NCBI RefSeq assembly: GCF_004959855.1
Contig: NZ_SPNT01000013.1
Coordinates: 1 to 64,000, forward strand
Reading direction: 5' to 3'
Length of the DNA stretch: 64,000 bases
Source of the DNA: Nitratireductor sp. XY-223
GTDB taxonomy: Bacteria; Pseudomonadota; Alphaproteobacteria; Rhizobiales; Rhizobiaceae
How positions within the stretch are numbered: position 1 is the first letter of the stretch; every line of letters begins with the position of its first letter. Shown here in pieces: positions 12,601-36,100 of this stretch. Made by a program: the position numbers and the translations under genes. A model generated the notes under the pieces. It searched no databases, was not told where the DNA came from, and saw nothing but the letters and a program-made list of their open reading frames with translations.

Positions 12601-12894
12601 CCCGCTCGATGATGCTCTCCAAAGCAACGGCAATGGCGCGCCTTCACCGACATGGTCGCGATCGATCCGGGAACTCTGGTGCCGGTTCTTGAGGACCTGT
12701 CCGCCTTTTTGATGCCGCATGCCCATCTCGCAGAGGAATTGAATCCATAGCGGCCAGGCCATGACAAACGTGTAGAATACTTCCGTGGTAGCCTGAGCGT
12801 GCATGGTTTCGAGCAGCCTGCGTTGTTCGATATCGAGGACGTTTGAGCTATGCGCCGGCCGACGGTGCTGGCAGTGAGTTGCGGTTGGAACGGC

Positions 12895-13434
12895 ATGAGA
12901 ATAGCAGCGATTGCGGCGGCCCTGCTGGCCGCCACGCCCGTGTGGAGCGAAGACAAACCCGAAGAAACCTGCGACTACGCCAACTATTCAGACTATTCAG
13001 AGCTATCCTTTCCCTTGGGCAGTTTGGTTCTTGTTAAGGCACGGCTTTGCGGCGATACCCGCTACAGCTATCTGGAAAAGAAAATGATCGCGTTGGGCGG
13101 CTGGCGGGAATGGCGCTGTAAAGATATCCTTAGCCTGGGCAAAGTCGACGATCATAACCTGATCCTTAAAAGCCTGGGCAAAACCGGGTTGGCTGAGATA
13201 ACTGGGCAGAAGCGAAAAATTGTTGCGATATACCTTGAAGAGGGCCTGTCCCATCTATTCGGGTGGGATCTAACGGAAAAAGGCTACGTAAATTACTCTC
13301 TCAAAATTTATCCTGATCAGTCCGTCTATTACAGCAGTTACAAAAACGCACCGATAGACGAAGAAACCAAAACACGAACGTCCCAATCACAACAGCTGCT
13401 CGGCACTTGCGCACTGGTGAAGGGCGGGGACTGA
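12895..13434 (+). CDS. Hypothetical exported protein
   Basis: From the ATG at 12895 the product is 179 residues with a clear signal peptide (MRIAAIAAALLAATPVWSED). The mature part starts with acidic, Tyr-rich sequence (CDYANYSDYSELSF). Four cysteines lie in the mature chain (in EETCDY, ARLCGD, EWRCKD and GTCALV), consistent with two periplasmic disulfides. No family was recognised. An upstream frame extension to 12850 is less likely because it would bury the signal peptide. Base composition is visibly less GC-rich than the operon that follows. The helicase start lies about 9 bases after its stop, so it may be co-transcribed with that operon or merely adjacent. Confidence 0.6.
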   Translation: MRIAAIAAALLAATPVWSEDKPEETCDYANYSDYSELSFPLGSLVLVKARLCGDTRYSYLEKKMIALGGWREWRCKDILSLGKVDDHNLILKSLGKTGLAEITGQKRKIVAIYLEEGLSHLFGWDLTEKGYVNYSLKIYPDQSVYYSSYKNAPIDEETKTRTSQSQQLLGTCALVKGGD

Positions 13435-13442
13435 GAAGCTGT

Positions 13443-16400
13443 GTGAGCGGATTGGAAGACCTGAAACCTGGGGCCCGCGTGAGCGGTATAGCACCAGGCT
13501 CTCCTGTCGAAATCGTTTCCGTTGACCCGATCGGAGAGCAGGCGGTGAATGTTGTCTACCGTTCGCCTGCCGGCGAACCGGCGGAAACGACCCTGTACCG
13601 GGACGACGAATACCGGCTCAAGGTCGAAGAGCCCGGCAGGATGTGGTCGTTCGACGCCGACGGGGCGATGCTCCGGCTGGTCACCGAAGCCAACCGGATA
13701 AGGCTGGCGCACTGTTTCGATCCCTATCTCGCCATCCATACCAGCCTGGTCGACCCGCTGCCGCATCAGATTTCCGCGGTGTACGGGGAAATGCTGCCGC
13801 GCCAGCCGCTTCGCTTCCTGCTCGCCGACGATCCGGGTGCCGGCAAAACTATCATGGCCGGGCTCCTGATCAAGGAACTGATGGCGAGAAGCGATCTTGA
13901 CCGGTGTCTGGTGGTCGCACCGGGAAGCCTTGTCGAGCAATGGCAGGACGAGCTTGGCGAGAAATTCTCGCTGGAGTTCGACATTCTGACCCGGGACATG
14001 ATCGAAACCTCGCGGTCGGGCAATGCCTTCAACGATCGCAATCGCCTGATCGCCCGTCTCGATGTGCTGGCGAGGAATGAAGACCTTCAGGAAAAGCTCG
14101 CCTCTTCCACCGAGTGGGATTTGATCATCTGCGACGAAGCCCACAGGATGTCGGCCGGCTATTTCGGCGGCGAAGTCAGATACACCCGGCGCTATCAGCT
14201 CGGTCAGGCGCTCGGGCGTCTGTGCCGTCATTTTCTCCTGATGACCGCGACGCCACACAATGGCAAGGAGGAAGACTTCCAGCTGTTCATGGCGCTTCTG
14301 GACGGCGACCGCTTCGAAGGCCGTTTCAGGGACGGCGTCCACTTCGCCGACAGCGCCGATATGATGCGGCGCCTGACAAAGGAAGAGCTTCTCAGGTTCG
14401 ATGGCCGTCCGCTGTTCCCGGAGCGCCGCGCCTATACCGTCAAATATGAACTCTCGCCCGGGGAAGCCGCGCTTTACGGCGCCGTCACCGGATATGTCCG
14501 CAACGAGATGAACCGCGTCCAGCGGTTTGCCGAGGCGGACGGCAGGAAGAGGAACAATGTCGGCTTCGCGCTTCAGATCCTGCAACGGCGCCTCGCATCG
14601 TCGCCGGCCGCGATCCATCAATCGCTCAAGCGTCGGCGCGAGCGTCTCGACAACGATCTTGCAGAGGCGCGGCTCGCACGCAGGGGCGCTCGCGCGGGAC
14701 CCGGTCCGCACGACGTCACGGATGAAGTGCTCAACAACATCGAGGAACTCGGCCAGGACGAAATCGATGAACTCGAAGACCGGATCTCCACGGGCGCCAC
14801 GACGGCGGAAACGATCGAGCAACTCGAACGCGAAGTCGCAACGCTCAAGGATCTTGAATCCATGGCGCTTGGAGTTCTGCGGTCAGGCAAGGACACCAAG
14901 TGGACACAGCTCGACCGCATCCTCGACGACGCATTGATGATCGACAGCGACGGCAATCGCCGCAAGCTGATCATATTCACCGAGCCGAAGGACACGCTTT
15001 CCTATCTGGCGCAAAAGGTCCGCGCCCGTCTTGGACGCCAGGATGCGGTCGAGGTGATCCATGGCGGGGTCACCCGTGAAGAGCGCCGCAAGGTGGTCGA
15101 GCGGTTCATGCAGGACCGTGACATGCTTGTGCTGATTGCCAATGACGCGGCCGGCGAAGGCGTCAACCTGCAGCGCGGGCACCTGATGGTCAATTACGAC
15201 CTGCCCTGGAACCCGAACAGGATCGAACAGCGGTTCGGCCGGATACACCGGATCGGGCAGATGGAAGTCTGTCACCTCTGGAACCTCGTTGCGGCGGACA
15301 CGCGAGAGGGCGAAGTCTATGCCCGCCTCCTCGACAAGCTTGAAGCCGCGCGCGAGGCGCTCGGCGGAAGGGTCTATGACGTTCTGGGCGAGCTGTTCGA
15401 GGGCACCGCGCTGCGCGATCTCCTTTTCGAGGCGATCCGCTACGGCGAGCAGGACGATGTCAGAGCCAGGCTGTTCGAGGCCGTCGATGGAGCGGTTGAC
15501 CAGCAGCATCTCATGGATCTGCTGCGGGAACGGCAACTGACCGAAGATACGATGCCTGCCGCGAAAGTTCAGGAATTGCGGCTGGAAATGGAACGGGCGG
15601 AGGCCCAGCGGCTTCAGCCCCATCACGTTCAGAGCTTCTTCGTCGCGGCGTTCGGGGAACTCGGCGGGCGGATCAGGAAGCGCGAGGAAAGCCGTTACGA
15701 GATCACCCACGTGCCCATGCGTATTCGCGAGCGCGACCGGCAGATCGGAGCCGGTACGCCGGTCCAGAAAAAATACGAACGCATCTGTTTCGACAAAAGA
15801 CACATCAATCAGCAGCCCGTGGCGGCATTCGTCTGTCCAGGTCACCCGCTTCTGGATGCCGTCATCAGTCTCGTCCGGGAACGCTTCGACCACCTCATGA
15901 AACAGGGCGCCGTTCTTGTCGACGATACCGATCCCGGCGACGAGACCGGCGCGCTGTTCCTGCTTGAACACAGCGTGCGGGACGGGCGCACCACTGCAAC
16001 GGGCAAGGCGCATGTCATCTCCGAGCGGATGCAGTTCACGTTTATCGACCGGAGCGGCCGGGCCGTGAATGCCGGCATCGCGCCGCATCTCGATCTTCGC
16101 CCGGCGGAAGCGGCGGAGATCGACGCGGTTCGCGACCTTCTCGACGAAGACTGGCTGCGCGGCGACCTGGAAAGGACCGCGATCGAATTCGCGACGATGG
16201 AACTCGCCCAGGCTCATGTCGGCGAGGTCCGGGCGCGCCGTCTGCCCGAGATCGACAAGGTGGAACGGGAAGTCAAGGCACGCCTCGGCAAGGAAATCAA
16301 TTACTGGGATGCCCGCGCATTTGAACTGAAAGAGGAAGAACGCGCCGGCAGGAAGACCCGTTTGAATTGGCAGAATGCCGGGCGCCGGGCCGAGGATCTC

Positions 16401-16949
16401 GCCGAACGCCTGAAGCGCCGCATGATCGTGCTGGAACAGGAACGGTTCATTTCCGCCCGGCCGCCTCGCGTGCGCGGCGGCATGATCGTCATCCCGCGCG
16501 GCCTGCTGGAGACCCGCACGCCAGCAGCAGGCCAGGGCAAACCGTCCGGCTTTGCCGAAGACCCGGTTGCCCGGCGCGGGATCGAATGCAAGGCCATGGA
16601 CGCCGTCATGGCCGCCGAACGCGCACTCGGCAACACGCCGACGGACGTATCTGCCCGGAAGGTCGGCTATGACATCGCGTCCTATGATCCGAAGACAGGG
16701 CACTTGCGCTTCATCGAGGTGAAGGGCCGCATCGACAGCGCCGACACGGTGATGGTGACGCGCCAGGAAGTGATCACCGCGCTGCACGAACCGGACAAGT
16801 TCATCCTCGCCATCGTGCAGGTCGAAGACGGTTTTGCCCGCGAACCGCGTTATGTCCGCCGCCCCTTCGGCCAGGAACCGGAGTTCGGCGTCACGGCCAT
16901 TCAGATCCGATTGAAGAGTCTTCTCGAAAGAGCGGAGGCGCCGGCATGA
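13443..16949 (+). CDS. SNF2/DEAD-family helicase with C-terminal DUF3883 domain (DrmD-like)
   Basis: This ~1168-residue protein has an SNF2/HepA-type helicase core: Walker A DDPGAGKT near residue 130, DEAH box CDEAHRMS near 230, motif III LLMTATPHNG, and motifs V/VI VNLQRGHLMVNYDLP with NRIEQRFGRIHRIGQ near 580-605. The last ~130 residues form a DUF3883 domain with FIEVKGR near 1090, a PD-(D/E)xK-like nuclease signature. This architecture is that of DrmD in class 1 DISARM. GTG at 13443 (VSGLEDLKPGARVSG) is preferred because the ATG at 13407 would overlap the upstream gene. The stop overlaps the next start by ATGA (16946). It probably translocates on DNA to scan or restrict invaders. Confidence 0.88.
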   Translation: MSGLEDLKPGARVSGIAPGSPVEIVSVDPIGEQAVNVVYRSPAGEPAETTLYRDDEYRLKVEEPGRMWSFDADGAMLRLVTEANRIRLAHCFDPYLAIHTSLVDPLPHQISAVYGEMLPRQPLRFLLADDPGAGKTIMAGLLIKELMARSDLDRCLVVAPGSLVEQWQDELGEKFSLEFDILTRDMIETSRSGNAFNDRNRLIARLDVLARNEDLQEKLASSTEWDLIICDEAHRMSAGYFGGEVRYTRRYQLGQALGRLCRHFLLMTATPHNGKEEDFQLFMALLDGDRFEGRFRDGVHFADSADMMRRLTKEELLRFDGRPLFPERRAYTVKYELSPGEAALYGAVTGYVRNEMNRVQRFAEADGRKRNNVGFALQILQRRLASSPAAIHQSLKRRRERLDNDLAEARLARRGARAGPGPHDVTDEVLNNIEELGQDEIDELEDRISTGATTAETIEQLEREVATLKDLESMALGVLRSGKDTKWTQLDRILDDALMIDSDGNRRKLIIFTEPKDTLSYLAQKVRARLGRQDAVEVIHGGVTREERRKVVERFMQDRDMLVLIANDAAGEGVNLQRGHLMVNYDLPWNPNRIEQRFGRIHRIGQMEVCHLWNLVAADTREGEVYARLLDKLEAAREALGGRVYDVLGELFEGTALRDLLFEAIRYGEQDDVRARLFEAVDGAVDQQHLMDLLRERQLTEDTMPAAKVQELRLEMERAEAQRLQPHHVQSFFVAAFGELGGRIRKREESRYEITHVPMRIRERDRQIGAGTPVQKKYERICFDKRHINQQPVAAFVCPGHPLLDAVISLVRERFDHLMKQGAVLVDDTDPGDETGALFLLEHSVRDGRTTATGKAHVISERMQFTFIDRSGRAVNAGIAPHLDLRPAEAAEIDAVRDLLDEDWLRGDLERTAIEFATMELAQAHVGEVRARRLPEIDKVEREVKARLGKEINYWDARAFELKEEERAGRKTRLNWQNAGRRAEDLAERLKRRMIVLEQERFISARPPRVRGGMIVIPRGLLETRTPAAGQGKPSGFAEDPVARRGIECKAMDAVMAAERALGNTPTDVSARKVGYDIASYDPKTGHLRFIEVKGRIDSADTVMVTRQEVITALHEPDKFILAIVQVEDGFAREPRYVRRPFGQEPEFGVTAIQIRLKSLLERAEAPA

Positions 16950-18580
16950 AATTTCCAAACGAACCCTCCGGACAAGCCGATTTCGAGAACAGGATCTTTG
17001 TCTGGCTTTCCTCGCAAGTCTCTTTGGAGGTGAGCGGAGAGAATATTTTCCGAACGCTTCAGGAGCGCATTCTGAAATGGGCTTTCGATCCGCAGCGAAA
17101 CCTGAAGGGGATTCCCGACGGCGCATGGGAAGGAAAATCGTTCGAGATCGATGCGGACAACTCTGAAGGGGCTGCCGCGGTCGCTCTGGACGACCTAAAA
17201 TATTATGCGTTCAGATTGCGCGAACGGCTAAAGGACCGGAACCGGATTTGGACAACGGAGGTGGGTCTTGCCGAGCGTTCGGCGGATGAAGCGATCTTTG
17301 GATGCCGCCTGATCTGCTCCCAGCGTGGTGACTCGGAGCCGGCTCCGCGGTCAATACCGCGTTTCGTCCGGGGAATGGCGTTCAAGCAAAACGCTCGACT
17401 CGATGGGCGTCGGACGTCGCCGGATCCCTGGATCGTCAATCGCGAAAACGACGTAAGCGAACTGATTTCATTCCTGGAATCGCCTCGGCGCAAGCACCCG
17501 GTCGTGGTCTTCGCGCTTCCGGAGGAGAGTGGTGACGTCGACCAGACGATCGTTCCGGTAAGACCATTCATTCGGCGCACGGTCGGGTTCGTGCACACGG
17601 CCGTTCTGACCTCGGAAGCGTCCTTCGCCTTGACGGATAAGCTGGGGCGCGAATTCTCCGTCTTTCGTCAGGCCGTTCGAACCTACAATCCGGGATTTGA
17701 CCCGGAAAGCGGCCTCTTTTCCGACCACCCAATGGCGACTGCGGCCAGAGTCCGGGAATGGGAGAACACGGAAGAAGGCGCTTTTGTCGAGTTTCTGGTG
17801 CATCAGACGCTGCGCCTCATGCGACCAAGGTCCGACCTGGAACGGGAACATCCGCCTTTTCAGCAGGTCAAGCGCTTGTCAGTGGAAAGAGCGAGACGTG
17901 CCGCCAAGGCAGCGGGCCAAAGCGATACCGAATTGCTCGCTCTTGCGGAAGAGGAAGTCAGCACTGCAAGAGCGGAAGCTCAGGAGAGTTTGGATCTCGC
18001 AGTTAACGCCGTCGCCGAAAAAGAACAGGCACTCACCGATCTTCGGGAAATGAAAGCCAGATACATGGCGCTCCAGTCTCGTGTCGATGCCCTGCAGGCG
18101 CAAAGCGCCGGCGGCAATCGCCAGGAGACGGAAATTCCCGACAGCCTGGATGAACTCCAGGTCTGGGCCGAAAACAACCTCTCCGGTTCCGTGGAACTCC
18201 ATAGCCGCGCCCTTCGGGGCGCCAAAGACGCCGAGTATGAAGACGTTTCCCTCATCTACAAGGCGCTTCTACTGCTCAGGGATTTCTATGTTCCGATGCG
18301 TCGCAATGGCGGCGCCGAATTGAAGTCGGCTTTCGATAACCGTTGCCGGGAACTCGGCATTGAAGAACAGCCCGCTTTCGCAGGCACGCGCGCCGCAGAA
18401 CAGGGTGACGCATATTTTGTTCGTTTCGGTCAGCGACGCATTGAACTGGACCGGCACCTCAAAAAGGGGACCAGCCGCGAACCGCGTCATTGTTTCCGAT
18501 TGTACTTTTTCTGGGATGAAACAACGAGACAGGCCGTTGTCGGCTGGCTTCCATCTCACCTTGCGACGAGAGCCAGTTGA
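16946..18580 (+). CDS. Unrecognised coiled-coil protein of the defence-type operon, candidate effector
   Basis: I do not recognise a family over most of this 544-residue protein. The N-terminal ~130 residues (QADFENRIFVWLSSQVSLE, GIPDGAWEGKSFEID) look globular. Residues ~310-395 are a charged, Ala/Glu-rich coiled coil (EEEVSTARAEAQESLDLA, AEKEQALTDLREMK). The C-terminal ~100 residues carry RELGIEEQPAF and end GTSREPRHCFRLYFFWDET followed by VVGWLPSHL. From general knowledge, a similar Arg/Phe/Trp-rich ending occurs in several standalone defence proteins. It starts inside the helicase stop (ATGA) and is followed five bases later by the methylase, so it belongs to the system. It could be an effector or a specificity subunit. 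Function unknown. Confidence 0.8.
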   Translation: MKFPNEPSGQADFENRIFVWLSSQVSLEVSGENIFRTLQERILKWAFDPQRNLKGIPDGAWEGKSFEIDADNSEGAAAVALDDLKYYAFRLRERLKDRNRIWTTEVGLAERSADEAIFGCRLICSQRGDSEPAPRSIPRFVRGMAFKQNARLDGRRTSPDPWIVNRENDVSELISFLESPRRKHPVVVFALPEESGDVDQTIVPVRPFIRRTVGFVHTAVLTSEASFALTDKLGREFSVFRQAVRTYNPGFDPESGLFSDHPMATAARVREWENTEEGAFVEFLVHQTLRLMRPRSDLEREHPPFQQVKRLSVERARRAAKAAGQSDTELLALAEEEVSTARAEAQESLDLAVNAVAEKEQALTDLREMKARYMALQSRVDALQAQSAGGNRQETEIPDSLDELQVWAENNLSGSVELHSRALRGAKDAEYEDVSLIYKALLLLRDFYVPMRRNGGAELKSAFDNRCRELGIEEQPAFAGTRAAEQGDAYFVRFGQRRIELDRHLKKGTSREPRHCFRLYFFWDETTRQAVVGWLPSHLATRAS

Positions 18581-18585
18581 GACCC

Positions 18586-21561
18586 ATGCCCATCCCCCGC
18601 AAGAAGAAACTCATCGAAGTCGCCCTGCCGCTGGAGGCGATCAATGCTGCGTCGGCGCGGGAGAAGTCGATCCGGCACGGGCACCCGTCGACGCTGCACC
18701 TTTGGTGGGCGCGGCGGCCGCTGGCGGCGTGCCGGGCGGTGCTGTTCGCGCAACTGGTGGACGATCCGTCGGGTTATGTCGAAACGCTGCTGAAAAACCC
18801 CGAGTTCCGGAAACCGGCCGAGGAAGAGCTGGAAGGGAAGCTTGCATCTCATGAAGACCGGCTGGGCGAACGCGGGGCCGATTCCGGGACGGCGCCCATG
18901 CCGACCCTGGAGGGCTGCGCCGCCGATCTGGAGCGCAAACGCCTGTTCGCGATCATCGAGGACCTGGTAAGGTGGGAGAACTCGACCAATGAAGAGGTGC
19001 TGGAATGCGCGCGGGTCGAAATCCGCAAGAGCTGCGCCCGCCGGCCCGACGGCTCTCTGCCTCAGGGCGACCTGAAAGACGTCGAATTGCCGCCGGTCTA
19101 CGACCCGTTCTCGGGCGGCGGGTCGATCCCGCTGGAGGCGCAGCGCCTCGGCCTGCCGGCTCACGGCTCGGACCTCAATCCCGTGGCGGTGATGATCGGC
19201 AAGGCCATGATCGAGATACCGCCGAAGTTCAGGGACATGGAACCGATCCATCCCGAAGGAAAGCAACGCGCCTTTTACCGCAATGCGGAAGGCCTGGCCG
19301 AGGATGTGAAGCATTACGGTGAATGGATGCTCGACCGCGCCGCCGAACAGATCGGGCATCTCTATCCGAAGGTCGATCTTCCGAAAGAGTATGTAAGAAG
19401 CATGGATCAGAAACAGGCAACCGTGATTGCCTGGATCTGGGCGCGGACTGTCCCCAGCCCGGACCCGGCTTTTGCGGACGTGCAGGTGCCGATCGCGTCA
19501 AGCTTTCTGTTGAGTTCGAAGGCCGCGAGGACGGCGTGGGTTGAACCGCTTGTCGACCGACAAGCCAGAACGATCACCTATCGCATCAGGCATGGCGGGA
19601 CGACCGAGGAAATTGCAATGGCGCGACAGGGCACAAAGGCAGGGCGCGGCGCGAATTTCCGTTGTATTCTTTCCGATACTGCCATCACACCGGATTACGT
19701 AAAGCGGATGGGCCGCAATGGGGAGATGGGCCAGACTCTTATTGCAATCGTTGCCGAAGGTAAGCGCGGCAGAGTTTATTCTGCGCCATCGGAACACCAT
19801 GCTCAAGCCGCTATGACTGCTGTGCCAGAATGGAAACCGGAAACGGATTTACCAAATGATCCTCGGAATTTTTGGACAGTAGACTACGGCCTGACCACCT
19901 TCGGCGATTTGTTCACCGACCGCCAGCTTGTAGCGCTGAACACGTTTTCGGGTTTGGTTCACGAGGCGCGGGCGCAGATCGAGCAGAACGCTCTGGCGGC
20001 AGGTATGAGCGGCGATGAAACCCCGCTTCGCAAGGGCGGAATTGGCGCCAAAGCCTACGCCGAAGCCGTGAGCGTGTATCTGGCGTTTGCGATTAATAGA
20101 TCCGTTGATCGAGGATCGTCTATTTGCACTTGGGATTCTTCTCCCAAGATGCAGGCCCTCCGAAATACGTTTTCTCGTCAGGCCATCCCGATGACGTGGG
20201 ATTTTGCAGAAGGTAACCCATTTTCTTCAGCAAGTGGAAATATACTAAACAATGTAGATTGGGTAGCAAAAGCTGTTGGCCTTTTTGTACCCGTTGGCAA
20301 AGGCCAAGAAAAAAACCGCGACGCTCAAACGGTCGATTACCCGGATCGAACCGTCATTTCCACCGATCCGCCCTACTACGACAATATCGGCTATGCGGAC
20401 CTGTCAGACTTCTTCTTCACATGGATGAAACCTGCCATTCGACCGGTTTACCCGGAGCTTTTTGGCGTTCTGGCAACCCCGAAGGCCGAGGAACTGGTCG
20501 CCACACCCTATCGGCATGGAGGCCGTGAGGCGGCTGAAGAGTTCTTTATGACCGGAATGAGCCGCGCGGTTGCAAACATGGCGGATCAGTCGTCGCCGGA
20601 CTTTCCGGCCACGATCTACTATGCGTTCAAGCAGTCCGAGATCGATCAGGACGGGATCAGTTCGACCGGCTGGGCCACTTTCCTGCAAGCGGTCATCGAA
20701 GCCGGATACGCGGTGGTGGGCACCTGGCCGATGCGAACCGAGATGGCGAACCGCATGATTGCATCCGGCACCAACGCCCTCGCAAACTCGGTGGTTCTTG
20801 TCTGCCGCAAGAAGGAAACCGACGCCGACACCATCACCCGCGCCGAGTTCATCCGTGCCCTGAAACGCGAACTGCCCCCGGCCATCGCCGAACTCCAGGC
20901 CGCCAACGTCTCCCCCGCCGACATGCCGCAATCGGCCATCGGCCCCGGCATGGGCGTGTTCTCGCGCCATGCGGCGGTGCTCGAATCCGATGACAGCCCG
21001 ATGAGCGTGAAGACCGCCCTGCAACTCATCAACAAGGAGCTCGATGCATTCCTCAACGATGTGCAGGGCGAGTTCGACGCCGACACGCGTTTCGCCATCA
21101 CCTGGTACGAACAGAACGGCATGAAGCCCGGCGATTATGGCATCGCCGACAGCCTCGCCCGCGCCCGCGGCATCTCGGTCGAGAGCGTCAAGCATGCGGG
21201 CATCGTCGAGAGCGCGGCGGGCAAGGTGCGCATCCTCAGGCGCGACGAACTCGATGCCGGCTGGACGCCGGAAACCGACAGGCACCTCACCGTCTGGGAA
21301 ATGCTGCAATACCTCATCCGCCAGCATGAGGGAAGCGGCCTCGGCGAGGACGCCGCGGCGCTGCTCAAGCGCTATGGCGCGCAGGCCGGTGCGGTGAAGG
21401 ACCTTGCCTATTGCCTTTATGACATCGCCGCCAACAAGCGCCGCGAGGCGGGCGAAGCAACGCCTTACAATGCGCTGATCGCGGACTGGACCGAGCTCAG
21501 CCGCATGGCCGCCAGCGTCTCGACCGGCAATGCCGGCCGTCAACTCGGATTGGAACTCTAG
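18586..21561 (+). CDS. DUF1156 adenine-specific DNA methylase (COG1743, DrmMI-like)
   Basis: This 991-residue protein begins with the DUF1156 segment (KKKLIEVALPLEAINAASAREKS, then HPSTLHLWWARRPLAACRAVLFAQ, in parts). It has methyltransferase motif I YDPFSGGGSIPLEAQRLG near residue 173 and catalytic motif IV STDPPYYDNIGYADLSDFFF near 592, the DPPY of amino-group DNA methylases. The long spacing between them is typical of COG1743. It would methylate host DNA as the self mark; class 1 DISARM uses this family as DrmMI. ATG at 18586 is chosen because the earlier in-frame codon is a TTG overlapping the previous stop. The middle part (~19600-20350) is slightly less GC-rich. Confidence 0.9.
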   Translation: MPIPRKKKLIEVALPLEAINAASAREKSIRHGHPSTLHLWWARRPLAACRAVLFAQLVDDPSGYVETLLKNPEFRKPAEEELEGKLASHEDRLGERGADSGTAPMPTLEGCAADLERKRLFAIIEDLVRWENSTNEEVLECARVEIRKSCARRPDGSLPQGDLKDVELPPVYDPFSGGGSIPLEAQRLGLPAHGSDLNPVAVMIGKAMIEIPPKFRDMEPIHPEGKQRAFYRNAEGLAEDVKHYGEWMLDRAAEQIGHLYPKVDLPKEYVRSMDQKQATVIAWIWARTVPSPDPAFADVQVPIASSFLLSSKAARTAWVEPLVDRQARTITYRIRHGGTTEEIAMARQGTKAGRGANFRCILSDTAITPDYVKRMGRNGEMGQTLIAIVAEGKRGRVYSAPSEHHAQAAMTAVPEWKPETDLPNDPRNFWTVDYGLTTFGDLFTDRQLVALNTFSGLVHEARAQIEQNALAAGMSGDETPLRKGGIGAKAYAEAVSVYLAFAINRSVDRGSSICTWDSSPKMQALRNTFSRQAIPMTWDFAEGNPFSSASGNILNNVDWVAKAVGLFVPVGKGQEKNRDAQTVDYPDRTVISTDPPYYDNIGYADLSDFFFTWMKPAIRPVYPELFGVLATPKAEELVATPYRHGGREAAEEFFMTGMSRAVANMADQSSPDFPATIYYAFKQSEIDQDGISSTGWATFLQAVIEAGYAVVGTWPMRTEMANRMIASGTNALANSVVLVCRKKETDADTITRAEFIRALKRELPPAIAELQAANVSPADMPQSAIGPGMGVFSRHAAVLESDDSPMSVKTALQLINKELDAFLNDVQGEFDADTRFAITWYEQNGMKPGDYGIADSLARARGISVESVKHAGIVESAAGKVRILRRDELDAGWTPETDRHLTVWEMLQYLIRQHEGSGLGEDAAALLKRYGAQAGAVKDLAYCLYDIAANKRREAGEATPYNALIADWTELSRMAASVSTGNAGRQLGLEL

Positions 21562-21572
21562 GGGGAAAGATC

Positions 21573-24500
21573 ATGGCGAAAAGTACACGCCAGCACATCT
21601 TTGACGGCATGGAACTGCTCCCCGAGGGACTGACGCCGTTCGTGGAAAAGCGGCTTGAAAGCGCACTGAAAGGCCATTGGCAGGTTGAGTTGGCGGATCG
21701 GGTTCAGGGCCTGCGCGCCACGGCGGATGGCGGCATCAACTGGGATCAGCAGGGCTTGCTGAAGACCATGATGTTTCTGTGGAAGGAGGCTTTCGGCACT
21801 GCGCTCGGACATCAGGAACGCTCCTATGTGTCGGAACTGCTGGAGGTCCGTAACCGCCTTTCGCACAACGAGACATTCACCTATGACGATGCCGAGCGCG
21901 CGCTCGACACGATGCGTCGGCTCCTGGAGGCGGTCAGCGCAAGGGAGATTGCGGAAAGGATCGGCCATGCCCGCGATACGGTTCTGCGCGTCAAGTATGC
22001 GGAACTTGCCCGCAATGAGGAGCGTCGAAAGACGCAGCGCTCGGACATCAATGTCGAAACCGTGTCCGGCCTGCTGCCCTGGCGGGATGTCGTCGAGCCG
22101 CACCAGGATGTCGCCACCGGCGAGTTCCGGCAGGCCGAGTTCGCCGCCGACCTCGCCAAGGTGCACAACGGCAGCGCGCCGTCGGAGTACAGGAACCCGA
22201 CGGAGTTCTTCGCTCGCACCTATCTGACGGAGGGGCTGAGCAACCTTCTCGTCAGCGCGGCCAGGCGCCTGAATGACAGCGGCGGCGATCCCGTCGTCGA
22301 GTTGCAGACCAATTTCGGCGGCGGCAAGACCCACTCCATGCTGGCCCTCTATCACATGGCAAGCGACACGCCGGTGCAGGACTTGCCGGGTCTCGACCAG
22401 TTGCTCTCCCGGCACGAACTGAGCGTGCCTGAAAGGATCAACCGCGCCGTGCTGGTGGGCACCTCGCGCGGGCCGCTGGATGTCATCGAACTCGAAGGCG
22501 GGCGGAGCATCCGCACGACCTGGGGCGAGCTTGCCTGGCAACTGGGCGGCACGGCCGGTCTTGAGATGGTTGCCGAGAACGATGCGAACGGCATCGCGCC
22601 CGGTTCGAACCTCCTCGAAGCACTGTTCGGGAAATTCTCGCCAACGCTGATCCTGATCGATGAATGGGTCGCCTATCTGCGGCAAATCTACAAGGTGGAC
22701 GGCCTGCCGTCGGGATCGTTCGATGCGAACCTTTCCTTCGTGCAATCGCTGACCGAAGCGGTAAAGGCGAGCCCCGGCACGCTGCTTGTCGCATCTCTCC
22801 CCGCGTCGCAGATCGAAGTGGGCGGCGAAGGCGGCCAGGAGGCGCTCGCCAGGCTGAAACAGACCTTCAGCCGCGTGGAATCCTCGTGGCGGCCGGCGAG
22901 CCAGGAAGAGAGCTACGAGATCGTCCGGCGCCGCCTCTTCAAGGACATTCCGGGCGACAGGTTCCGTCACCGCGACAATACGCTGAAACAGTTCGTCAGG
23001 CTCTACCGGGAAAACGCCGATGATTTCCCGCGGGGCTGTTCGGACGAGGAATACCGCCGCAAGCTGGAAAGGGCGTATCCGGTGCATCCCGAACTGTTCG
23101 ATCAGCTCTATACAAGTTGGGGATCGCTCGAAAAATTCCAGCGCACGCGCGGCGTGCTGCGCCTGATGGCGCAGGTCATCCATGAACTGTGGATGGGCGG
23201 CGACCCGTCCGTGATGATCATGCCGGCAAGCGTGACGGTCGGTTCGGCGCGGGTCGAACCGGAACTCCTGCATTATCTCGACGCGAACTGGCAGTCGATC
23301 ATCGCCGGCGACGTGGATGGCGTCACCTCGACACCCTACAAGGTCGATCAGTCCGCCCCGAACCTGAACCGCTACTCCGCCGCGCGGCGTGTGGCGCGCG
23401 CCGTCTTCATGGGAACGGCGCCGACGCATGGCCAGGAGAACAGGGGCCTTGATGACAAGCAGATCAATCTCGGCGTCGTCCAGCCCGGTGAAAGGCCGGC
23501 TATCTTCGGAGATGCGCTGCGCAGGCTGACCAACCAGGCCAGGTTCATGCACAGCGATCTCGGCCGCTACTGGTATTCGACATCGGCCAGCCTCAACCGG
23601 ATCGCGGCGGATCGCGCCGGACAGTTCGAGGAAGCGCTTGTTCTGATGGAAATCGACAAGGCATTGTCGGCCTACATCAACGGGCTTGCCGACCGCGGGC
23701 ACTTTGACGCCGTGCAGGTTGCGCCGGGAAGTTCGTCCGATGTGCCGGACGAGCCCGGCGGCGTTCGCGCCGTGGTGCTGGGTGTCGCACACCCGCATAC
23801 CGGGCGGGACGGATCCGAAGCGCTGACCGAAGCCGCGGACATCCTGATGCGGCGCGGAACAACCCCCCGTGTCTACCGCAACATGATGGTCTTCCTCGCC
23901 GCCGAGCAAAGACAGCTTGACGATCTCAAGGCCGCGCAGCGCTCGGTGCTGGCCTGGACCGAGATTGTGGCGCACACGGACAGGCTCGATCTCAAGCAAA
24001 GCGACATCGCCCTTGCCGGAGCCAGGTCGAGAGAATCGATGGATACTCTGAACACCCGGCTCCGGGAAAGCTGGTGCCATCTGCTCTATCCTGTCCAGGA
24101 GACAGCGCAGTCGGACCTTGAATGGATGTGGTCCAGGGTGCCGGCCCAGAACGGGTTGCTGTCGCGAGCGAGCAAGGAGCTGGTGAGCGATGAGGAATTG
24201 TTGCCGGAACTCGGGCCATCGCGTCTGGACAGGGAACTGCAGAAATACATCTGGAACGGGAAACCGCATCTGAGCCTCAGGGACCTGTGGGAGTTCCTGA
24301 ACAGATTCACCTATCTGCCGCGCCTGAAGAACAGATCCGTACTGACCCGATCGGTGCATTCGGCCATAAGCGGCATGTTGCCGGGGCCGTTTGCCTATGC
24401 CGAAGGCTGGGATGAAGCCAAGGAGGCTTATCAGGGGCTGGTGGTTTCAGGGGGCATGAGCGCGAACGTCGTTATCGACGGCAATTCCCTGATCGTGAAG

Positions 24501-24866
24501 CCTGACATAGCTGCGGCGCATACGTCTGAAGCGGACGTTCCGGAGACGGAAAACCGGCTCACCGGAGAAACCGCCGGCGCGGAGAAGGCAACGCAGGCAA
24601 CCGGTACTGGCGATCCCGGAACCGGGGAAGGCAAGAATCCCACCAGGTTTCAAGGGGCCGTGATGATCTCGGCCGACCGTCCTGCGCGGGAAATCCATAA
24701 GGTTGTCGAAGCCGTCGTCGAACAGTTGACGACGCTTCCGGGCGCCGATGTATCCCTGAAACTCGAAATCGATGCGGAAGTCTCCGGCGGGCTGGACAGC
24801 GGCAAAGTGCGCACGCTGATGGAAAATGCGGCAACGCTCGGGTTCATAGACAAGAAGATCGAATAG
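21573..24866 (+). CDS. Swt1/HEPN domain fused to DUF499 AAA+ ATPase (COG1483)
   Basis: This is a 1097-residue protein. Residues ~1-125 match Swt1-family HEPN domains, with VRNRLSHN at 92-99 giving an R93-x4-H98 motif of the kind that forms HEPN ribonuclease active sites. The rest is DUF499: FARTYLTEGLSNLLVSAARRL, Walker A NFGGGKTHSMLALYH near 248-262, Walker B PTLILIDEWVAYLRQ near 355, and a C-terminal region ~890-1097 with a low-complexity acidic linker before a final small domain. DUF499 ATPases are known companions of DUF1156 methylases. The RBS AGGGGGAAAG precedes the ATG, 11 bases after the methylase stop. It may couple ATP-driven sensing to RNA cleavage. Confidence 0.88.
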   Translation: MAKSTRQHIFDGMELLPEGLTPFVEKRLESALKGHWQVELADRVQGLRATADGGINWDQQGLLKTMMFLWKEAFGTALGHQERSYVSELLEVRNRLSHNETFTYDDAERALDTMRRLLEAVSAREIAERIGHARDTVLRVKYAELARNEERRKTQRSDINVETVSGLLPWRDVVEPHQDVATGEFRQAEFAADLAKVHNGSAPSEYRNPTEFFARTYLTEGLSNLLVSAARRLNDSGGDPVVELQTNFGGGKTHSMLALYHMASDTPVQDLPGLDQLLSRHELSVPERINRAVLVGTSRGPLDVIELEGGRSIRTTWGELAWQLGGTAGLEMVAENDANGIAPGSNLLEALFGKFSPTLILIDEWVAYLRQIYKVDGLPSGSFDANLSFVQSLTEAVKASPGTLLVASLPASQIEVGGEGGQEALARLKQTFSRVESSWRPASQEESYEIVRRRLFKDIPGDRFRHRDNTLKQFVRLYRENADDFPRGCSDEEYRRKLERAYPVHPELFDQLYTSWGSLEKFQRTRGVLRLMAQVIHELWMGGDPSVMIMPASVTVGSARVEPELLHYLDANWQSIIAGDVDGVTSTPYKVDQSAPNLNRYSAARRVARAVFMGTAPTHGQENRGLDDKQINLGVVQPGERPAIFGDALRRLTNQARFMHSDLGRYWYSTSASLNRIAADRAGQFEEALVLMEIDKALSAYINGLADRGHFDAVQVAPGSSSDVPDEPGGVRAVVLGVAHPHTGRDGSEALTEAADILMRRGTTPRVYRNMMVFLAAEQRQLDDLKAAQRSVLAWTEIVAHTDRLDLKQSDIALAGARSRESMDTLNTRLRESWCHLLYPVQETAQSDLEWMWSRVPAQNGLLSRASKELVSDEELLPELGPSRLDRELQKYIWNGKPHLSLRDLWEFLNRFTYLPRLKNRSVLTRSVHSAISGMLPGPFAYAEGWDEAKEAYQGLVVSGGMSANVVIDGNSLIVKPDIAAAHTSEADVPETENRLTGETAGAEKATQATGTGDPGTGEGKNPTRFQGAVMISADRPAREIHKVVEAVVEQLTTLPGADVSLKLEIDAEVSGGLDSGKVRTLMENAATLGFIDKKIE

Positions 24867-26164: not shown

Positions 26165-27965
26165 CCGTACGTGCCCGATTAAGGCATACGGCTCCTACCG
26201 CTGGTGTTTGACGAGAAAGCGTTGTTCCGGCCATGGGTGCATCACGCGCGGCATCGGCAACCACCTTTTGGCAATCACGTTCATGCGTCGCCATTTGAAC
26301 CGGCGGCCGCGTTGGCTGCGTCTGCATAGAGACAGATACCAACGCACCTTGATCGCATGGCGAACGTTACGAACTGCGCTGATGTTGGTCGGTACCGCAA
26401 AGTAGGCATAATGCCCCTGCAGTACCCTGGCCAACCATCGGCCCTGATCGTCAATCGGCTGGTGCCGCATGCTTTCAGTTCCCGCGTGACCTTGTTGATG
26501 AAGGTCTGCTTGGCGTGCCGCCGCGTCTTGCGATGAAGTTGGAAACCACGTCCGTTGCGCTTGACGCCACAAATGTGGGTGAAGCCAAGGAAGTCGAACG
26601 TCTGCGGCCTCTTCTCTCCCCGCCGCTTGCGCCCTTCGGCCACAAAACGGCCAAAGGCGATGAGACGGGTCTTCTCACCATTCAACGACAGCCCGAACCG
26701 GGCAAGACGCTCGTCAAGCGCGCGCCGGAACCGATCAGCCTCGTCCTTGTGCTGGAAACCGACTACCGTATCGTCGGCATAGCGCACGACAATCATGGCG
26801 CCGGTGGCGTGATGCTTGCGCCACGCCTCAACCCACAGATCATACACATAGTGAAGGGTAATGTTCGCAAGCAATGGCGAAATCACCGCGCCTTGCGGCG
26901 TGCCCTTCAGTGTCTCGACCCGTGTGCCGTTTCGAAACGGATCAGCCAGTCATGGCTGATTGTGTCGAAGAATGCACGGATATCGGCATCCAGGATCCAG
27001 GCGATACTGCGTGATTTGAGTCCGTACCCAAGGGCGTCCAGCGCATCGTGCTGACCGCGCCCCGGCCGGAACCCATAGCTGAAACCCAGGAACTGCGCCT
27101 CGTAGACAGGCGTCAGAACCATGACCACCGCCATCTGGACGATCTTGTCCTCAATGGCTGCAATGCCGAGCGGCCGTTGCCTGCCGTCCGGCTTCGGGAT
27201 CATCACCCGCCGTGATGGCAACGCCCGATACGCTCCCCGGTGCAGGCGGGCATGCAGGTCGTGAAGCCGGGGCTCCATGTCCCGTGCATAATCCGCCCAC
27301 ACCTCATCATCAATGCCCGCGGCGGCCCGCTTCTTCAGTGCGAAGAACGCACCGCGCAAAACATCGACGCCGGGATGATGGAAAAGCGCCGTCATTCGTT
27401 CCTGTTTGTTCCTGTTGACTGCTTCTCGTATGCGGTGCTGCGCCTGTGACACGGCTGCCCGGCTCTGCGTCCGGACCGTGCTTTGCATCACCGCATTCCC
27501 TTCGGTCCGGCCCCTTTCCTCCATCGGCTCCGCAGAAGAATAGTCCGCCTTGTTCGCCGGTTTCACGGGTAATATGGGCCGGTCTGACTTCTCTATCCCG
27601 TGCATCATGGTCGACGGCTCCCAGCCTTCACCATGCGGCCCGCATTACGGCGATTGCGGACAGGACAGAGATCTCTTGCTTCCCGAGGAGAGACGTACGC
27701 ACATGCCAGGGTCTAACGACGGCGCGGGGCCGGACCGGCACTTGCATAGCGCACCGCTCCGTATTGCCTTCTGCAGACTGGAAAGCATCGGCACCCCGAA
27801 TTTGAAGTCTTTCGCCACTCAATGGCTGGCCTATGCGCATCCCTGTCAACGCTTCACGAATGGCCTCGCGGCCAGCCGCGCATGACTCGGGGCCGGTGTG
27901 GTTTGCCAAACCTTCACCGTAAAGGACTTCCACCTTCTGTCTCCTCCTCAGTTAGAGCAACGCAC
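26165..27965 (-). mobile_element. Group II intron inserted in IS66 orfB (degenerate)
   Basis: On the minus strand the intron begins GTGCG at 27965, directly after the OrfB codons for FEGLDW. It has the domain I-like AGGTGGAAGTCC stretch near 27930 and a reverse-transcriptase/maturase frame in domain IV. It ends with a domain V-like hairpin, GAGCCGTATGCC...GGCACGTACGGATCTG, at about 26164-26200. The size (~1.8 kb) fits bacterial group II introns with a short ORF. The 3' exon expected to finish orfB is missing, and OrfA sequence in the opposite direction sits there instead. The intron end has therefore been rearranged and splicing is unlikely. Confidence 0.75.
26195..27524 (-). pseudogene. ltrA: Group II intron reverse transcriptase/maturase, broken
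   Basis: Reading right to left, the first frame covers RT domains 0-4: RMTALFHHPGVDVLRGAFFALKKR, GIDDEVWADYARD, RRVMIPKPDGRQRPLGIAAIEDK, FRPGRGQHDALDAL and DADIRAFFDTISHDWLIRF. There the frame jumps: about 26 residues are deleted and reading resumes as TLKGTPQGAVISPLLANI, VVRYADDTVVGF (catalytic YADD) and FDFLGFTH. A second shift near 26465 leads to the maturase-type C-terminus, YFAVPTNISAVRN to WPEQRFLVKHQR. Three frames and a deletion in the RT palm make it inactive, although YADD survives. Confidence 0.85.
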
Positions 27966-33189: not shown

Positions 33190-36100
33190 CTACGCCACAA
33201 TCGTCTGGGGCGAAGGCGGGACGGTGATCACCGTCCCGCTCGTCATCAGAACGATCAGGCCCCGTTCGGCGCCGGTCATATCGAGATAGGCACGCACCTG
33301 AGCCCGATAGTGATCGAGTGTCTCCCGGGTGGGATTCACGTCGCTCTTCCAGTCGATCACGACGGCTGGCCGACCTTCCGGATCAACCGTAAGCGCGTCC
33401 GCGATGCCGGCCGTCGCAACCAGCTCGGCATCCCCTTGTTGAAGGGCATAGACCGGAAATTCAGCGAGCAATGAGGGACGCAAGGCCGCCACCTCCGACA
33501 AGGCCAGCGTTCGCGTCACGCAACCGGCCAGTTCCTCAGGCGAAAGCCCGTTCGCCGGATCGGAGGAGGGCTCCTCGCCGAGCGCACGGATGAGGTCAGC
33601 GGCGCGCGCGGTGAGCGCCTCGCCGGCCTCGTCGCATTCCCCTGTCAGAATTTCTTCCATGAGCTTGTGAAGGATCAGTCCACGCTCGCGCCCGCCCTGG
33701 ACAGAGGCGGACGCTTCGGCGTCTGGTGACGGACCGTCATCCGACCCGGCCCAGATGTCCGGTTCTTCTTCCTGAAAGACCGAACCGGTCGCCGTCTCGT
33801 CGCGGCTCGGCGCAAGCCAGGTCAGGTGCATCAGCCTTTCGGCAATCGTTCCTGCCTCAGCGGCGAAACTCTCCCGTGTCTGGTCGTTTGCGGTATCGCC
33901 GGTCACCGCGATCGGATCGAGCGGAAGATGCGACACGTCAAGGACAGGAAGACCGGTGAGCGACAGGTCCACAAGGCCGATCCAGGCCGACGTCGAAGGC
34001 GTTACGTCGAGCCGCGGCAAGACCAAGAGCTCCCGGGCGCGGGTTGCCGCGACATACCAGAGCCGGACACGCTCGCGGTCCAGTTCATCCTTCTCGGCCT
34101 GACGCGCCGCGTCGTAACCGGCCGGAGGGACGCCCAGAACCGGGCAGTAGATGGTATCGGTCTGCCGATCGGTCACGGCGCTATCGGGCGCCATCACCCC
34201 TGTCATGGTGTTGATGGGGATAACGACCGGCCATTCAAGACCCTTCGCGGCATGCATCGTGTATAGGGCGACGGCTTCTTCCTGCGCATCGGGCCGGCCT
34301 TCCACCGCACGGGCCTCATCGGTCCATGCCGCCGTCATAGTCTCGGAAAAGGCCCGCAGGCCGCGTACTGCATAGCCGGTGGCGAGGCTGAGATAGAGAT
34401 CGACATTGGCGAGCGCACGTTCTGCCTGACCGCGATGCCGCTCCAGAAGAACCGGGCGTACCCGAAGGACATCGACGGCCTGCGAAAGAAGGTCGTGCGG
34501 TGTCGTGCTGTTGGAGCGTTTCTGGAGCGCCTGCAGCCGCTCAATAACATCGCGCGCCAGCGGATGCATTATTGCCGCCGGGTCGATACCAAGGTCGAGC
34601 CGTGGGATCCGGTCGGATTCCTCTTCCGAACGCGGAAGCGCCCAGACGATGTCCAGGAGTTCCTCTTCGCTGAGCCCGACAAGCGGCCCGCGCAGCAATG
34701 CGCCGAGCGCCAGCGTATCACGACGATCGGCGAGAACCCGCGTGATCGCGATGAGGTCCTGCACTTCCTGCCGGCGAAACAGCCCTTTGCCGGCCTGGGT
34801 TGCGACCGGAATGCCCAGGCGCTCAAGGGCCTCTTCATAACACCAGAGCTCCGCGCCGGTCGGTGCAAGTAAGGCGATGTCGCCCGGCTGGCAGGGGCGT
34901 TGTGCACCGGCTTTGCGATCCTGGACCGGATGGCTGCCGATCAAGCGGGCGCAAAGTTCAGCCACCGCTTCGGCTTCCGCGTCGCGTCGCTGTTCGGCGC
35001 TGGCCTTGCCGTTCTCATCAGCGACCGCGATATCGATTGCGGCGACGCAGACGCCGTCGTCCGGATCGTCGTGGAAGGGATTGAGCGCAGTGAATCCGGG
35101 TTGCCCATCAGCCGACAGAACAGCCTCGAACCGTTCGTTGACGAAAGTGAGGATCGAGGCACAGGAACGGAAATTGGTCGAGATCGAGACGAGGCCATCC
35201 GCGGCCTGCGTCGAGAAGGCGGCGCGGGCCTGGACATAAGCGCCGACATCCGCGCCGCGGAAACGATAGATTGCCTGCTTGGGGTCGCCAACCAAGAAGA
35301 GTGCGCCCGGCCGAATCCGGAAGCTCGTCCAGTCCTTCGGGTCATCACCGGGATCACCGCATAGACGCCAGAAGATTTCGGCCTGGAGCGGGTCGGTATC
35401 CTGAAACTCGTCGACGAGGACCTTTGAATACCGTTGGCCGAGCGCCTGTCGCACGGATTCATGATCGCGCAACAGGTCGCGCGCGGCGTAAATGAGATCG
35501 CCGAAATCGAGGTGAGCGCTGGCGCGCTTGCTCTCGCGATAGCGCGCAAGGATTGTGCGTGCTTCGTCCATCAATGTCGTAAGGACCTGGCCGGAAACCG
35601 CCTGGCGCAGCGCGGTCCACGCGACGCAGCACGCCTCGTACAGGCAGCTGGCCGTATCGTTCAGTCTGTCGCCGTCTGCCCTGGAGAGCCCTGCCTGCTT
35701 GGCCGCCGCCGCCCATTTGCCCTTCTTGCGGTAGGCGGAAAAGCGGCCCGTCCCGGTCGTAAGATCGGGATGCGGGCGCGCAACCAGCAGCCCGACGAGC
35801 CCGGCGGGCGTGGAACCATCCGCAACCGATGGCAGGGCGGCCGCCATTTCAGTAAGACGCATGGTGATGACCTCCGTTTCCGGCTCATCGACGCCGACGC
35901 CCTGCATAAAGGCCGAAAGTTCGTCGGCCGCCTGCCGGAAGGCTTGCAGGTGACCTGCAAAAGGCATCGCGTTCGGTGCGACCAGATTCCTGGACCGCCT
36001 GAGGGCTTCGGCGATCTTGTGCATCAGAGCGACGGTCTCTCCCGGGCCGTGCAGCACCATCTCGGCCAGGACACCGCCTTGATCGCCCGACAGGCGCTCG

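What the first reader, a model, noticed from the sequence alone, without database searches (positions are those of the whole stretch)
13443..24866. Four-gene DISARM-related operon without DrmA, DrmB or DrmC
The sequence shows four plus-strand genes with overlaps of 4 bases or gaps of 5-11 bases: SNF2 helicase-DUF3883, an unrecognised coiled-coil protein, DUF1156 methylase, and HEPN-DUF499 ATPase. Helicase and methylase match the DrmD and DrmMI families of class 1 DISARM, yet the DISARM core genes are absent. DUF499 and DUF1156 proteins are known to travel together. The combination with the unknown protein looks like a self-contained modification-restriction system distinct from DISARM.
Basis: partly seen in the sequence, partly recalled or inferred. 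Interest (0 to 1): 0.88.

Follow-up and report, generated by a model that had tools for sequence, protein, structure and literature searches.

The report
Hma defence operon with HEC-07 cassette
The four genes are a known restriction-like phage-defence operon (Hma) with a separate, exchangeable single-gene defence candidate (HEC-07) sitting in its middle, rather than a new DISARM-like four-gene system.

Summary
The operon is real and open at 13443-24866. Genes 1, 3 and 4 are HmaA, HmaB and HmaC of the known Hma system ("Type-1 BR" in a 2026 paper). Gene 2 is recognised by PADLOC as HEC-07, an "Hma-embedded candidate". Of 81 HEC-07 loci, 17 lie with Hma genes, 3 with Type I restriction genes, 46 have neither within 6 kb, and 15 are too short to judge. 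No flanking family recurs in more than 2 of 43 such solitary loci. So the locus is a restriction-like module plus an exchangeable solo gene. Not found in print by my searches: slot turnover on the HmaA tree, HEC-07 inside Type I restriction operons, and a HEC-07 C-terminal domain related to Menshen NsnC (hhalign 93.7%; 91.0% without the closest row) with weak, non-significant fold likeness to RelE-type toxins. HEC-07 as a sensor-gated RNA-cutting toxin is plausible, not shown.

The parts
13443..16949 (+). HmaA: RapA-like SNF2 helicase with C-terminal PD-(D/E)XK (NOV_C/DUF3883) nuclease domain
   Evidence: PADLOC HmaA 1606 bits over residues 1-1167; Pfam SNF2, Helicase_C, NOV_C; DEAH 228-234, QRxGRxHRxGQ 596-606 and GYD...IEVK 1075-1094; my Walker A pattern did not match, but the sequence reads DPGAGKT
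16584..16826 (+). NOV_C/DUF3883 domain of HmaA, predicted restriction nuclease
   Evidence: Pfam PF13020 1.2e-20, residues 1048-1128; DUF3883 described as a REase domain in PMC3710099 (passage)
16946..18580 (+). HEC-07, embedded single-gene defence candidate
   Evidence: PADLOC HEC-07 621 bits; AlphaFold model pLDDT 89.7
16994..17401 (+). HEC-07 N-terminal domain, residues 17-152, perhaps helix-grip-like
   Evidence: AlphaFold boundaries; whole-model Foldseek best E 8.4e-4, TMq 0.15, PR-10/START-like targets; the table gives no query range, so the assignment to this domain is inferred
17924..18109 (+). HEC-07 coiled coil, residues 327-388
   Evidence: AlphaFold secondary structure
18155..18577 (+). 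HEC-07 C-terminal domain with conserved H504, R518, Y520, W523, D524, P536, H538
   Evidence: A3 conservation; pLDDT 93.1; related to NsnC C-terminus; RelE-like fold, not significant
18577..21561 (+). HmaB: DUF1156 adenine-type DNA methylase
   Evidence: PADLOC HmaB 1240 bits; DUF1156 1.6e-27; DPFxGxG 176-182 and DPPY 597-600
21573..24866 (+). HmaC: HEPN (Swt1-like) + DUF499 AAA+ ATPase
   Evidence: PADLOC HmaC 924 bits over residues 167-1094; HEPN_Swt1 6.3e-28, DUF499 7.7e-31; GGGKT 249-253, LILIDE 359-364, RNxxxH 93-98
21606..21938 (+). HEPN domain of HmaC with RNxxxH motif
   Evidence: Pfam PF18731 residues 12-122; motif

Best explanation
An intact Hma (DUF499-centred, Type-1 BR) restriction-like defence operon carries a second, independent defence candidate, HEC-07, in the variable slot between hmaA and hmaB. 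Inferred Hma action (from families and papers, not shown here): HmaB methylates host DNA at adenine, the BrxC-like ATPase HmaC assembles a recognition complex, HmaA translocates on unmodified foreign DNA and cuts it with its C-terminal nuclease, and the HEPN domain of HmaC is a backup RNase. HEC-07 is inferred to work alone: its N-terminal half senses infection, the coiled coil oligomerises, and the C-terminal domain, shared with Menshen NsnC, is the effector or an interaction head. The slot gives HEC-07 shared transcription, translational coupling and transfer; it is not a required Hma subunit.
For: Identity of all four genes. Motifs of HmaA, HmaB and HmaC present. HmaB-anchored samples: 21 distinct genomes, slot readable in 18: empty 5, HEC-07 2 (window included), other content 11, among it Septu PtuAB (L030), TmtA-like proteins, and GmrSD_N plus PDC-S21. 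On the HmaA tree (28 rows, quick method) the HEC-07 label needs 7 changes, 6 forced by starred branches. Window HmaA is 81% identical to L045 (HEC-07 in slot) and 80% to L200 (GmrSD_N/PDC-S21 in slot). HEC-07-anchored set of 81: 17 Hma, 3 Type I RM, 46 with neither within 6 kb, 15 too short. HEC-07 tree (78 rows): hma label 6 changes, at least 4 forced. No flanking family (E 1e-5, 4 kb each side) recurs in more than 2 of 43 solitary loci. HEC-07 G+C 0.576 against 0.608-0.627 for the Hma genes.
Against: Nothing here shows antiphage activity, methylation or cleavage. Where the joint could be read plainly, HEC-07 overlaps hmaA by 4 bases in 10 of 12 operons (window, L045, L046, L048, L061, L102, L105, L111, L117, L118; L041 and L042 have gaps of 10 and 12), and in the tree the label hma is far more clustered than in shuffles (0 of 500 as low), with the window's clade made of Hma-embedded copies and one of unreadable context; so some functional coupling is possible. 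On the HmaA tree the label is hardly less mixed than chance (32 of 500 shuffles as low) and a long-branch warning was given. The genome scan kept the best 80 of 131 relatives, ranked by likeness to an alignment headed by the window protein. 'Solitary' was tested only against Hma and Type I RM queries; L116 has an HmaA gene 6.2 kb away, and L077 follows a gene with MkoA/DpdJ-like matches.
Confidence: 0.8

Rival explanations
1. HEC-07 is a dedicated Hma subunit (sensor or guard against anti-restriction) in this subclade, so the four genes act as one machine; solitary copies are a different functional branch.
For: 4-base overlap with hmaA in 10 of 12 plainly readable operons; the window's HEC-07 groups at SH-aLRT 100 with 3 Hma-embedded copies and 1 of unreadable context; HEC-07 also sits inside Type I RM operons, where a restriction guard could be expected.
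Against: 16 of 18 readable HmaB-anchored operons lack it; close Hma relatives carry unrelated genes in the slot; HEC-07 and HmaA disagree on the nearest relative: L045 has the closest HmaA (81%) but HEC-07 only 46%, against 58% for L042.
Confidence: 0.13
2. The C-terminal domain of HEC-07 is a RelE/HigB-like ribonuclease, so HEC-07 is a one-protein, sensor-gated RNA-cutting toxin without an antitoxin gene.
For: 25 of the 50 printed Foldseek rows for the domain (16 PDB entries) are toxin-antitoxin entries of the RelE/ParE/YoeB/HigB kind, 24 by title and one (HP0892) by recall; that PfiAT is of this kind is also recalled, and which chain is the toxin was not checked. H504, R518, Y520, W523, D524, P536 and H538 are at least 90% conserved; no recurrent partner gene.
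Against: None of the 171 matches is significant (best E 0.16). hhalign to ParE (19 of 30 loci used) and HigB (13 of 14) alignments gives nothing, though the ParE-HigB control also fails, so that test has no power.
Confidence: 0.35
3. The C-terminal domain is a binding or recognition head (for a phage product or a partner), as its relative in Menshen NsnC may be, and HEC-07 kills by another route or acts as a sensor for an unlinked effector.
For: Profile relation to NsnC (93.7%); Menshen has a predicted OLD-type nuclease component (PMC10952713, passages; which Nsn gene that is was not checked); no Pfam nuclease domain found in 77 HEC-07 members beyond scattered single hits.
Against: HEC-07 has no recurrent partner gene, so a pure sensor would need an unlinked effector.
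Confidence: 0.4
4. A DISARM derivative that lost DrmABC.
For: HmaA is a distant DrmD relative (392 bits).
Against: Better and near full-length match to Hma models; NCBIfam DrmD cut-off missed (368 against 610); no MZB/DUF1998 domain (a DrmB mark, recalled) in the held genome; the best DrmA match in the genome is HmaA itself; the methylase hits no DrmMI model.
Confidence: 0.02

Closest known systems
Hma system (Payne 2021, PMC8565338) = Type-1 BR, DUF499-centred BREX-related system (Rakesh & Krishnan 2026, PMC12839542)
   Same: SNF2 helicase with C-terminal PD-(D/E)XK, DUF1156 adenine-type methylase, DUF499 ATPase with N-terminal HEPN, as one operon
   Different: An extra gene, HEC-07, between hmaA and hmaB. 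In L203 a WYL-domain gene stands directly upstream of hmaA (genes of similar size in other relatives were not scanned); the window's upstream ORF (194 aa) has no Pfam match
HEC-07, Hma-embedded candidate (PADLOC-DB; the 2024 preprint on embedded candidates, 10.1101/2024.01.29.577857, could not be read)
   Same: Gene 2 matches all four HEC-07 models, best over residues 11-544
   Different: Found here also inside Type I RM operons and mostly without Hma; C-terminal domain linked to NsnC
Menshen NsnC
   Same: C-terminal domain aligned at 93.7% probability, 91.0% without L028; shared H.K...RI.Y...VG..G.HL pattern
   Different: NsnC is about 310 aa and lacks the HEC-07 N-terminal half; the window protein's own domain hits no NsnC model; no Menshen genes were identified at this locus (its ORFs were not exhaustively scanned)
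DISARM class 1 (DrmD, DrmMI, DrmABC)
   Same: Related SNF2 helicase
   Different: DrmD cut-off missed, no DrmMI match, no MZB/DUF1998 domain in the genome
NCBIfam anti-phage PLD helicase / DUF1156 / DUF499 set (NF042964, NF042963, NF042962), probably Type-2 BR (inferred)
   Same: Related helicase, methylase and ATPase
   Different: All three cut-offs missed by far (165 of 1100, 128 of 1000, 160 of 1200); no PLD domain in the helicase and no DUF3780 match among the four genes

Membership tests
Hma / Type-1 BR | Helicase, methylase and ATPase genes of the Hma families in one operon | tested here: met
Hma / Type-1 BR | SNF2 helicase fused to C-terminal PD-(D/E)XK nuclease (79% of Type-1 taxa, PMC12839542) | tested here: met
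   NOV_C match and GYD...IEVK pattern
Hma / Type-1 BR | DUF1156 methylase with DPPY motif | tested here: met
Hma / Type-1 BR | DUF499 ATPase, often with HEPN | tested here: met
Hma / Type-1 BR | No DUF3780 (Type 2) or PglZ (Type 3) gene in the operon | tested here: met
   none among the four genes; not every ORF of the window was scanned
Hma / Type-1 BR | Adenine methylation and phage restriction | not testable with these tools
   needs bench work
HEC-07 | Match over nearly the full length of a PADLOC HEC-07 model | tested here: met
   621 bits, residues 11-544, model 13-553 of 553
HEC-07 | Embedded in an Hma operon | tested here: met
DISARM class 1 | DrmD helicase above curated cut-off | tested here: not met
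   368 of 610 bits
DISARM class 1 | DrmMI methylase | tested here: not met
   no DrmMI among 15 PADLOC matches
DISARM class 1 | DrmA | tested here: not met
   one DrmA model searched: best genome match is HmaA (225 bits); the other five are 31.5 bits or less
DISARM class 1 | DrmB (MZB/DUF1998 domain as its mark, recalled) | tested here: not met
   0 matches in the held genome, 98.7% complete; no DrmB model was searched
DISARM class 1 | DrmC | not tested
   not searched
RelE/HigB toxin superfamily (HEC-07 C-terminal domain) | Significant fold or sequence match | tested here: inconclusive
   25 of 50 printed Foldseek rows but best E 0.16; profile test without power
NsnC C-terminal domain family | Profile homology over the domain | tested here: met
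   93.7%, E 1.8e-7 for the single comparison, 127 columns; reversed control 0.2%; without L028 91.0%; without L028 and three far NsnC rows 47.7%, E 1.9e-4

The most novel reading that the evidence does not exclude
HEC-07 is a solo, sensor-gated RelE-like RNA-cutting toxin that recurrently plugs into a fixed cassette slot of restriction-like operons (Hma and Type I RM). There it rides with, and possibly guards, the host restriction system; with NsnC it defines a new effector-domain family shared across unrelated defence systems.
Probability: 0.22. Interest if true: 0.62.

Novelty: new member of a known kind. Interest (0 to 1): 0.4.

Why it matters
It corrects a tempting misreading of four co-oriented genes as one new system. 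It also gives a clear example of cassette turnover at a fixed slot inside a restriction-like operon, and links an uncharacterised solo defence candidate to a domain of Menshen, which makes the effector question testable with point mutants.

Tried and rejected
DISARM derivative: rejected on curated cut-offs and missing core domains. ARMADA and other YprA-helicase systems (PMC12458937, outline and abstract): not pursued, since HmaA is a SNF2 helicase with an Hma match. HEC-07 as obligate Hma part: not supported by distribution. Phage-borne HEC-07: no match in the phage collection at E 1e-5, 1 locus in viral contigs. Plasmids: 12 of 72,556 records match, none over 80% of the protein. Pfam on 77 HEC-07 members: scattered matches, many of coiled-coil kind, no family in more than 6 members. 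PDB by sequence: 29 chains for HEC-07 at E up to 1, all over the helical/coiled-coil stretch; 2 weak chains (E 0.33 and 0.56) for its C-terminal domain; nothing for NsnC, HmaC or HmaB; HmaA matches RapA best. Viral fold library: nothing at E <= 0.001. RelE link by profile comparison: nothing, and the ParE-HigB control also failed. A label of mine was wrong: the L114 gene taken as HsdM is not HsdM-like but carries a PDC-S05-like part; L114 still has HsdS and HsdR. In print: searches with DUF499/DUF1156/DISARM, ARMADA/DISARM, Hma/HmaA/HEC-07, the preprint's title words, Menshen/Nsn, guilt-by-embedding/HEC-06/HEC-07, HEC-07 alone and Snf2-nuclease listed no open-access paper on HEC-07 itself; the HEC-07 strings listed are under unrelated titles, and those papers were not opened. 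The embedded-candidate preprint and the 2025 Menshen paper are not held.
Full report
Observation. The four genes exist as described, tightly packed on the plus strand. The motifs sought are present: helicase DEAH and QRxGRxHRxGQ, a PD-(D/E)XK pattern in NOV_C, DPFxGxG and DPPY in the methylase, GGGKT, LILIDE and a HEPN RNxxxH in the ATPase. My Walker A pattern missed HmaA, whose sequence reads DPGAGKT. No gene is broken.

Identity. PADLOC names all four: HmaA (1606 bits), HEC-07 (621), HmaB (1240), HmaC (924). HEC stands for "Hma-embedded candidate" (PMC12988326, passages). Hma was proposed as a three-gene helicase-methylase-ATPase system (PMC8565338, passages). The same gene group was noted in 2013 for the HEPN-DUF499 fusion beside SNF2-DUF3883 (PMC3710099, passages) and in 2020 with EVE proteins (PMC7641849, passages). 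A 2026 paper renames it Type-1 BR and relates it to Type-3 BREX (PMC12839542, sections 29 and 33, part 1 of section 35, and passages). The window fits Type-1 BR: helicase-nuclease fusion, HEPN-DUF499, no DUF3780 or PglZ match among the four genes. The 2021 paper calls HmaB an m5C methylase and the 2026 paper an N6-adenine methylase; the DPPY motif favours adenine (family knowledge).

DISARM. The helicase is a distant DrmD relative, but falls under the NCBIfam DrmD cut-off (368 of 610 bits). The methylase has no DrmMI match. No MZB/DUF1998 domain, a DrmB mark (recalled), is in the held genome, and the best DrmA match there is HmaA itself. DrmC was not searched.

Do the four genes belong together? 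Two samples were anchored on HmaB (E <= 1e-50), independent of HEC-07 except that both include the window's own genome: 12 of 289 genomes of the class and 10 of 199 of the family, 21 distinct genomes. One operon per genome was read (a second HmaB match in G637 was not). The HmaA-HmaB interval could be read in 18; 3 (L033, L037, L040) could not. It is empty in 5 (L032, L034, L035, L039, L201), holds HEC-07 in 2 (the window and L203) and other genes in 11. Those include Septu PtuAB (L030; L195 has genes of similar size, not scanned), TmtA-like proteins (L199, whose HmaA is nearly identical to that of L031; and L036), a GmrSD_N protein with PDC-S21 (L200), and proteins without a PADLOC match or not scanned (L038, L196, L197, L198, L202). 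Conversely HEC-07 is in 7 of 289 class genomes and 5 of 199 family genomes, 11 distinct; only the window and L203 have it next to HmaB. G261 has both, but about 21 kb apart or further.

HEC-07 elsewhere. A scan of genome contigs with a six-row alignment found 131 relatives; the best 80 were kept, plus one viral contig. Of these 81 loci, 17 have Hma genes nearby (16 with HEC-07 just upstream of HmaB; one, L083, downstream of HmaC), 3 lie with Type I restriction genes (L094 and L097 with HsdM, HsdS and HsdR; L114 with HsdS and HsdR, its HsdM not identified), 46 have neither within 6 kb and at least 1.5 kb readable on both sides, and 15 were too short to judge. L116, counted among the 46, has an HmaA gene 6.2 kb away. 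The scan leans towards Hma because ranking was by likeness to the window protein. Four near-identical solitary loci (L055, L062-L064) come from two records. Around 43 distinct solitary loci no flanking family (ORFs of 80 aa or more, E 1e-5, 4 kb each side) recurs in more than 2 loci, so no conserved partner or antitoxin was seen at that sensitivity. On the HEC-07 tree (78 rows; four rows under 400 aa left out; quick method) the Hma label needs 6 changes, at least 4 forced by starred branches, and is clearly clustered (0 of 500 shuffles as low); the Type I RM label needs 2. On the HmaA tree (28 chosen rows; the duplicate L041 and short rows left out; quick method, with a long-branch warning) the HEC-07 label needs 7 changes, 6 forced; 32 of 500 shuffles are as low. 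Window HmaA is 81% identical to L045 (HEC-07) and 80% to L200 (GmrSD_N/PDC-S21), so near relatives differ in slot content.

What HEC-07 is. The AlphaFold model from 77 sequences has mean pLDDT 89.7: an N-terminal beta-rich domain (about 17-152), an alpha/beta region (about 149-250), helices, a coiled coil (327-388) and a C-terminal domain (404-544). The whole-model Foldseek search gives weak PR-10/START-like matches (best E 8.4e-4, TM by query 0.15), presumably to the N-terminal domain; the table gives no query range. In the C-terminal domain Y520 and H538 are invariant and H504, R518, W523, D524 and P536 are at least 90% conserved over 72 sequences. At E up to 0.5 the PADLOC NsnC model PDLC03912 matches this domain in 31 of 72 members (best 2.3e-4) and PDLC03899 in one (7.6e-11); the window's own domain matches none. 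In L028, the most distant row, the match runs over residues 328-559. A profile of 10 NsnC proteins aligns with the domain at 93.7% probability, E 1.8e-7 for the single comparison; the reversed control gives 0.2%. Without L028 it is 91.0%; without L028 and three far NsnC rows it falls to 47.7%, E 1.9e-4. The domain model (pLDDT 93.1) gives a Foldseek list in which 25 of the 50 printed rows, from 16 entries, are RelE/ParE/YoeB/HigB-kind toxin-antitoxin entries (two assignments by recall), but none is significant (best E 0.16), and profile comparison with ParE and HigB sets gave nothing, with a failed positive control.

Mechanism. Shown: gene identity, motifs, slot variability, separability of HEC-07, profile relation of its C-terminal domain to NsnC. 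Inferred from families and papers: HmaB protects host DNA, HmaC organises recognition, HmaA cuts foreign DNA, HEPN is a backup RNase. Inferred more weakly: HEC-07 acts alone as sensor plus effector; RNase activity is about as likely as a binding role. The 4-base overlap with hmaA in 10 of 12 plainly readable operons suggests shared expression.

Novelty. The system and the HEC-07 family are known. The Type I RM contexts, the measured slot turnover and the NsnC link did not turn up in the searches listed under Tried and rejected, but the two most relevant papers could not be read. Interest is moderate.

Noticed in passing
39946-41534 (-): AbiEii/AbiEi toxin-antitoxin pair (Pfam) about 15 kb downstream of the operon, so the region looks like a defence island.
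   Followed up: no
33190-39236 (-): Two overlapping large genes: UvrD helicase with PD-(D/E)XK (1131 aa) and a PD-(D/E)XK protein (884 aa), an AddAB-like pair (name by recall; domains).
   Followed up: no
26281-27608 (-): Reverse transcriptase (RVT_1) ORF followed by a second ORF in another frame, looking like a broken group II intron protein, just downstream of the operon.
   Followed up: no
12850-13434 (+): 194-aa ORF without Pfam match stands directly upstream of hmaA, where L203 has a WYL-domain gene.
   Followed up: partly
L114:5324-11470: In Pseudoxanthomonas suwonensis a PDC-S05-like gene, HsdS, a CD-NTase-like gene (PADLOC 'Cyclase', 354 bits) and HEC-07 precede HsdR.
   Followed up: partly
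L094:9866-12596: HEC-07 and PDC-S05 sit together between HsdS and HsdR in a Bradyrhizobiaceae contig.
   Followed up: no
L087: Mesorhizobium sediminum carries a degraded Hma operon with HEC-07, HmaB and HmaC in pieces.
   Followed up: no
L078:8974-9795: A DUF3800 protein precedes HEC-07 in the Hma slot of a Defluviicoccus contig.
   Followed up: no
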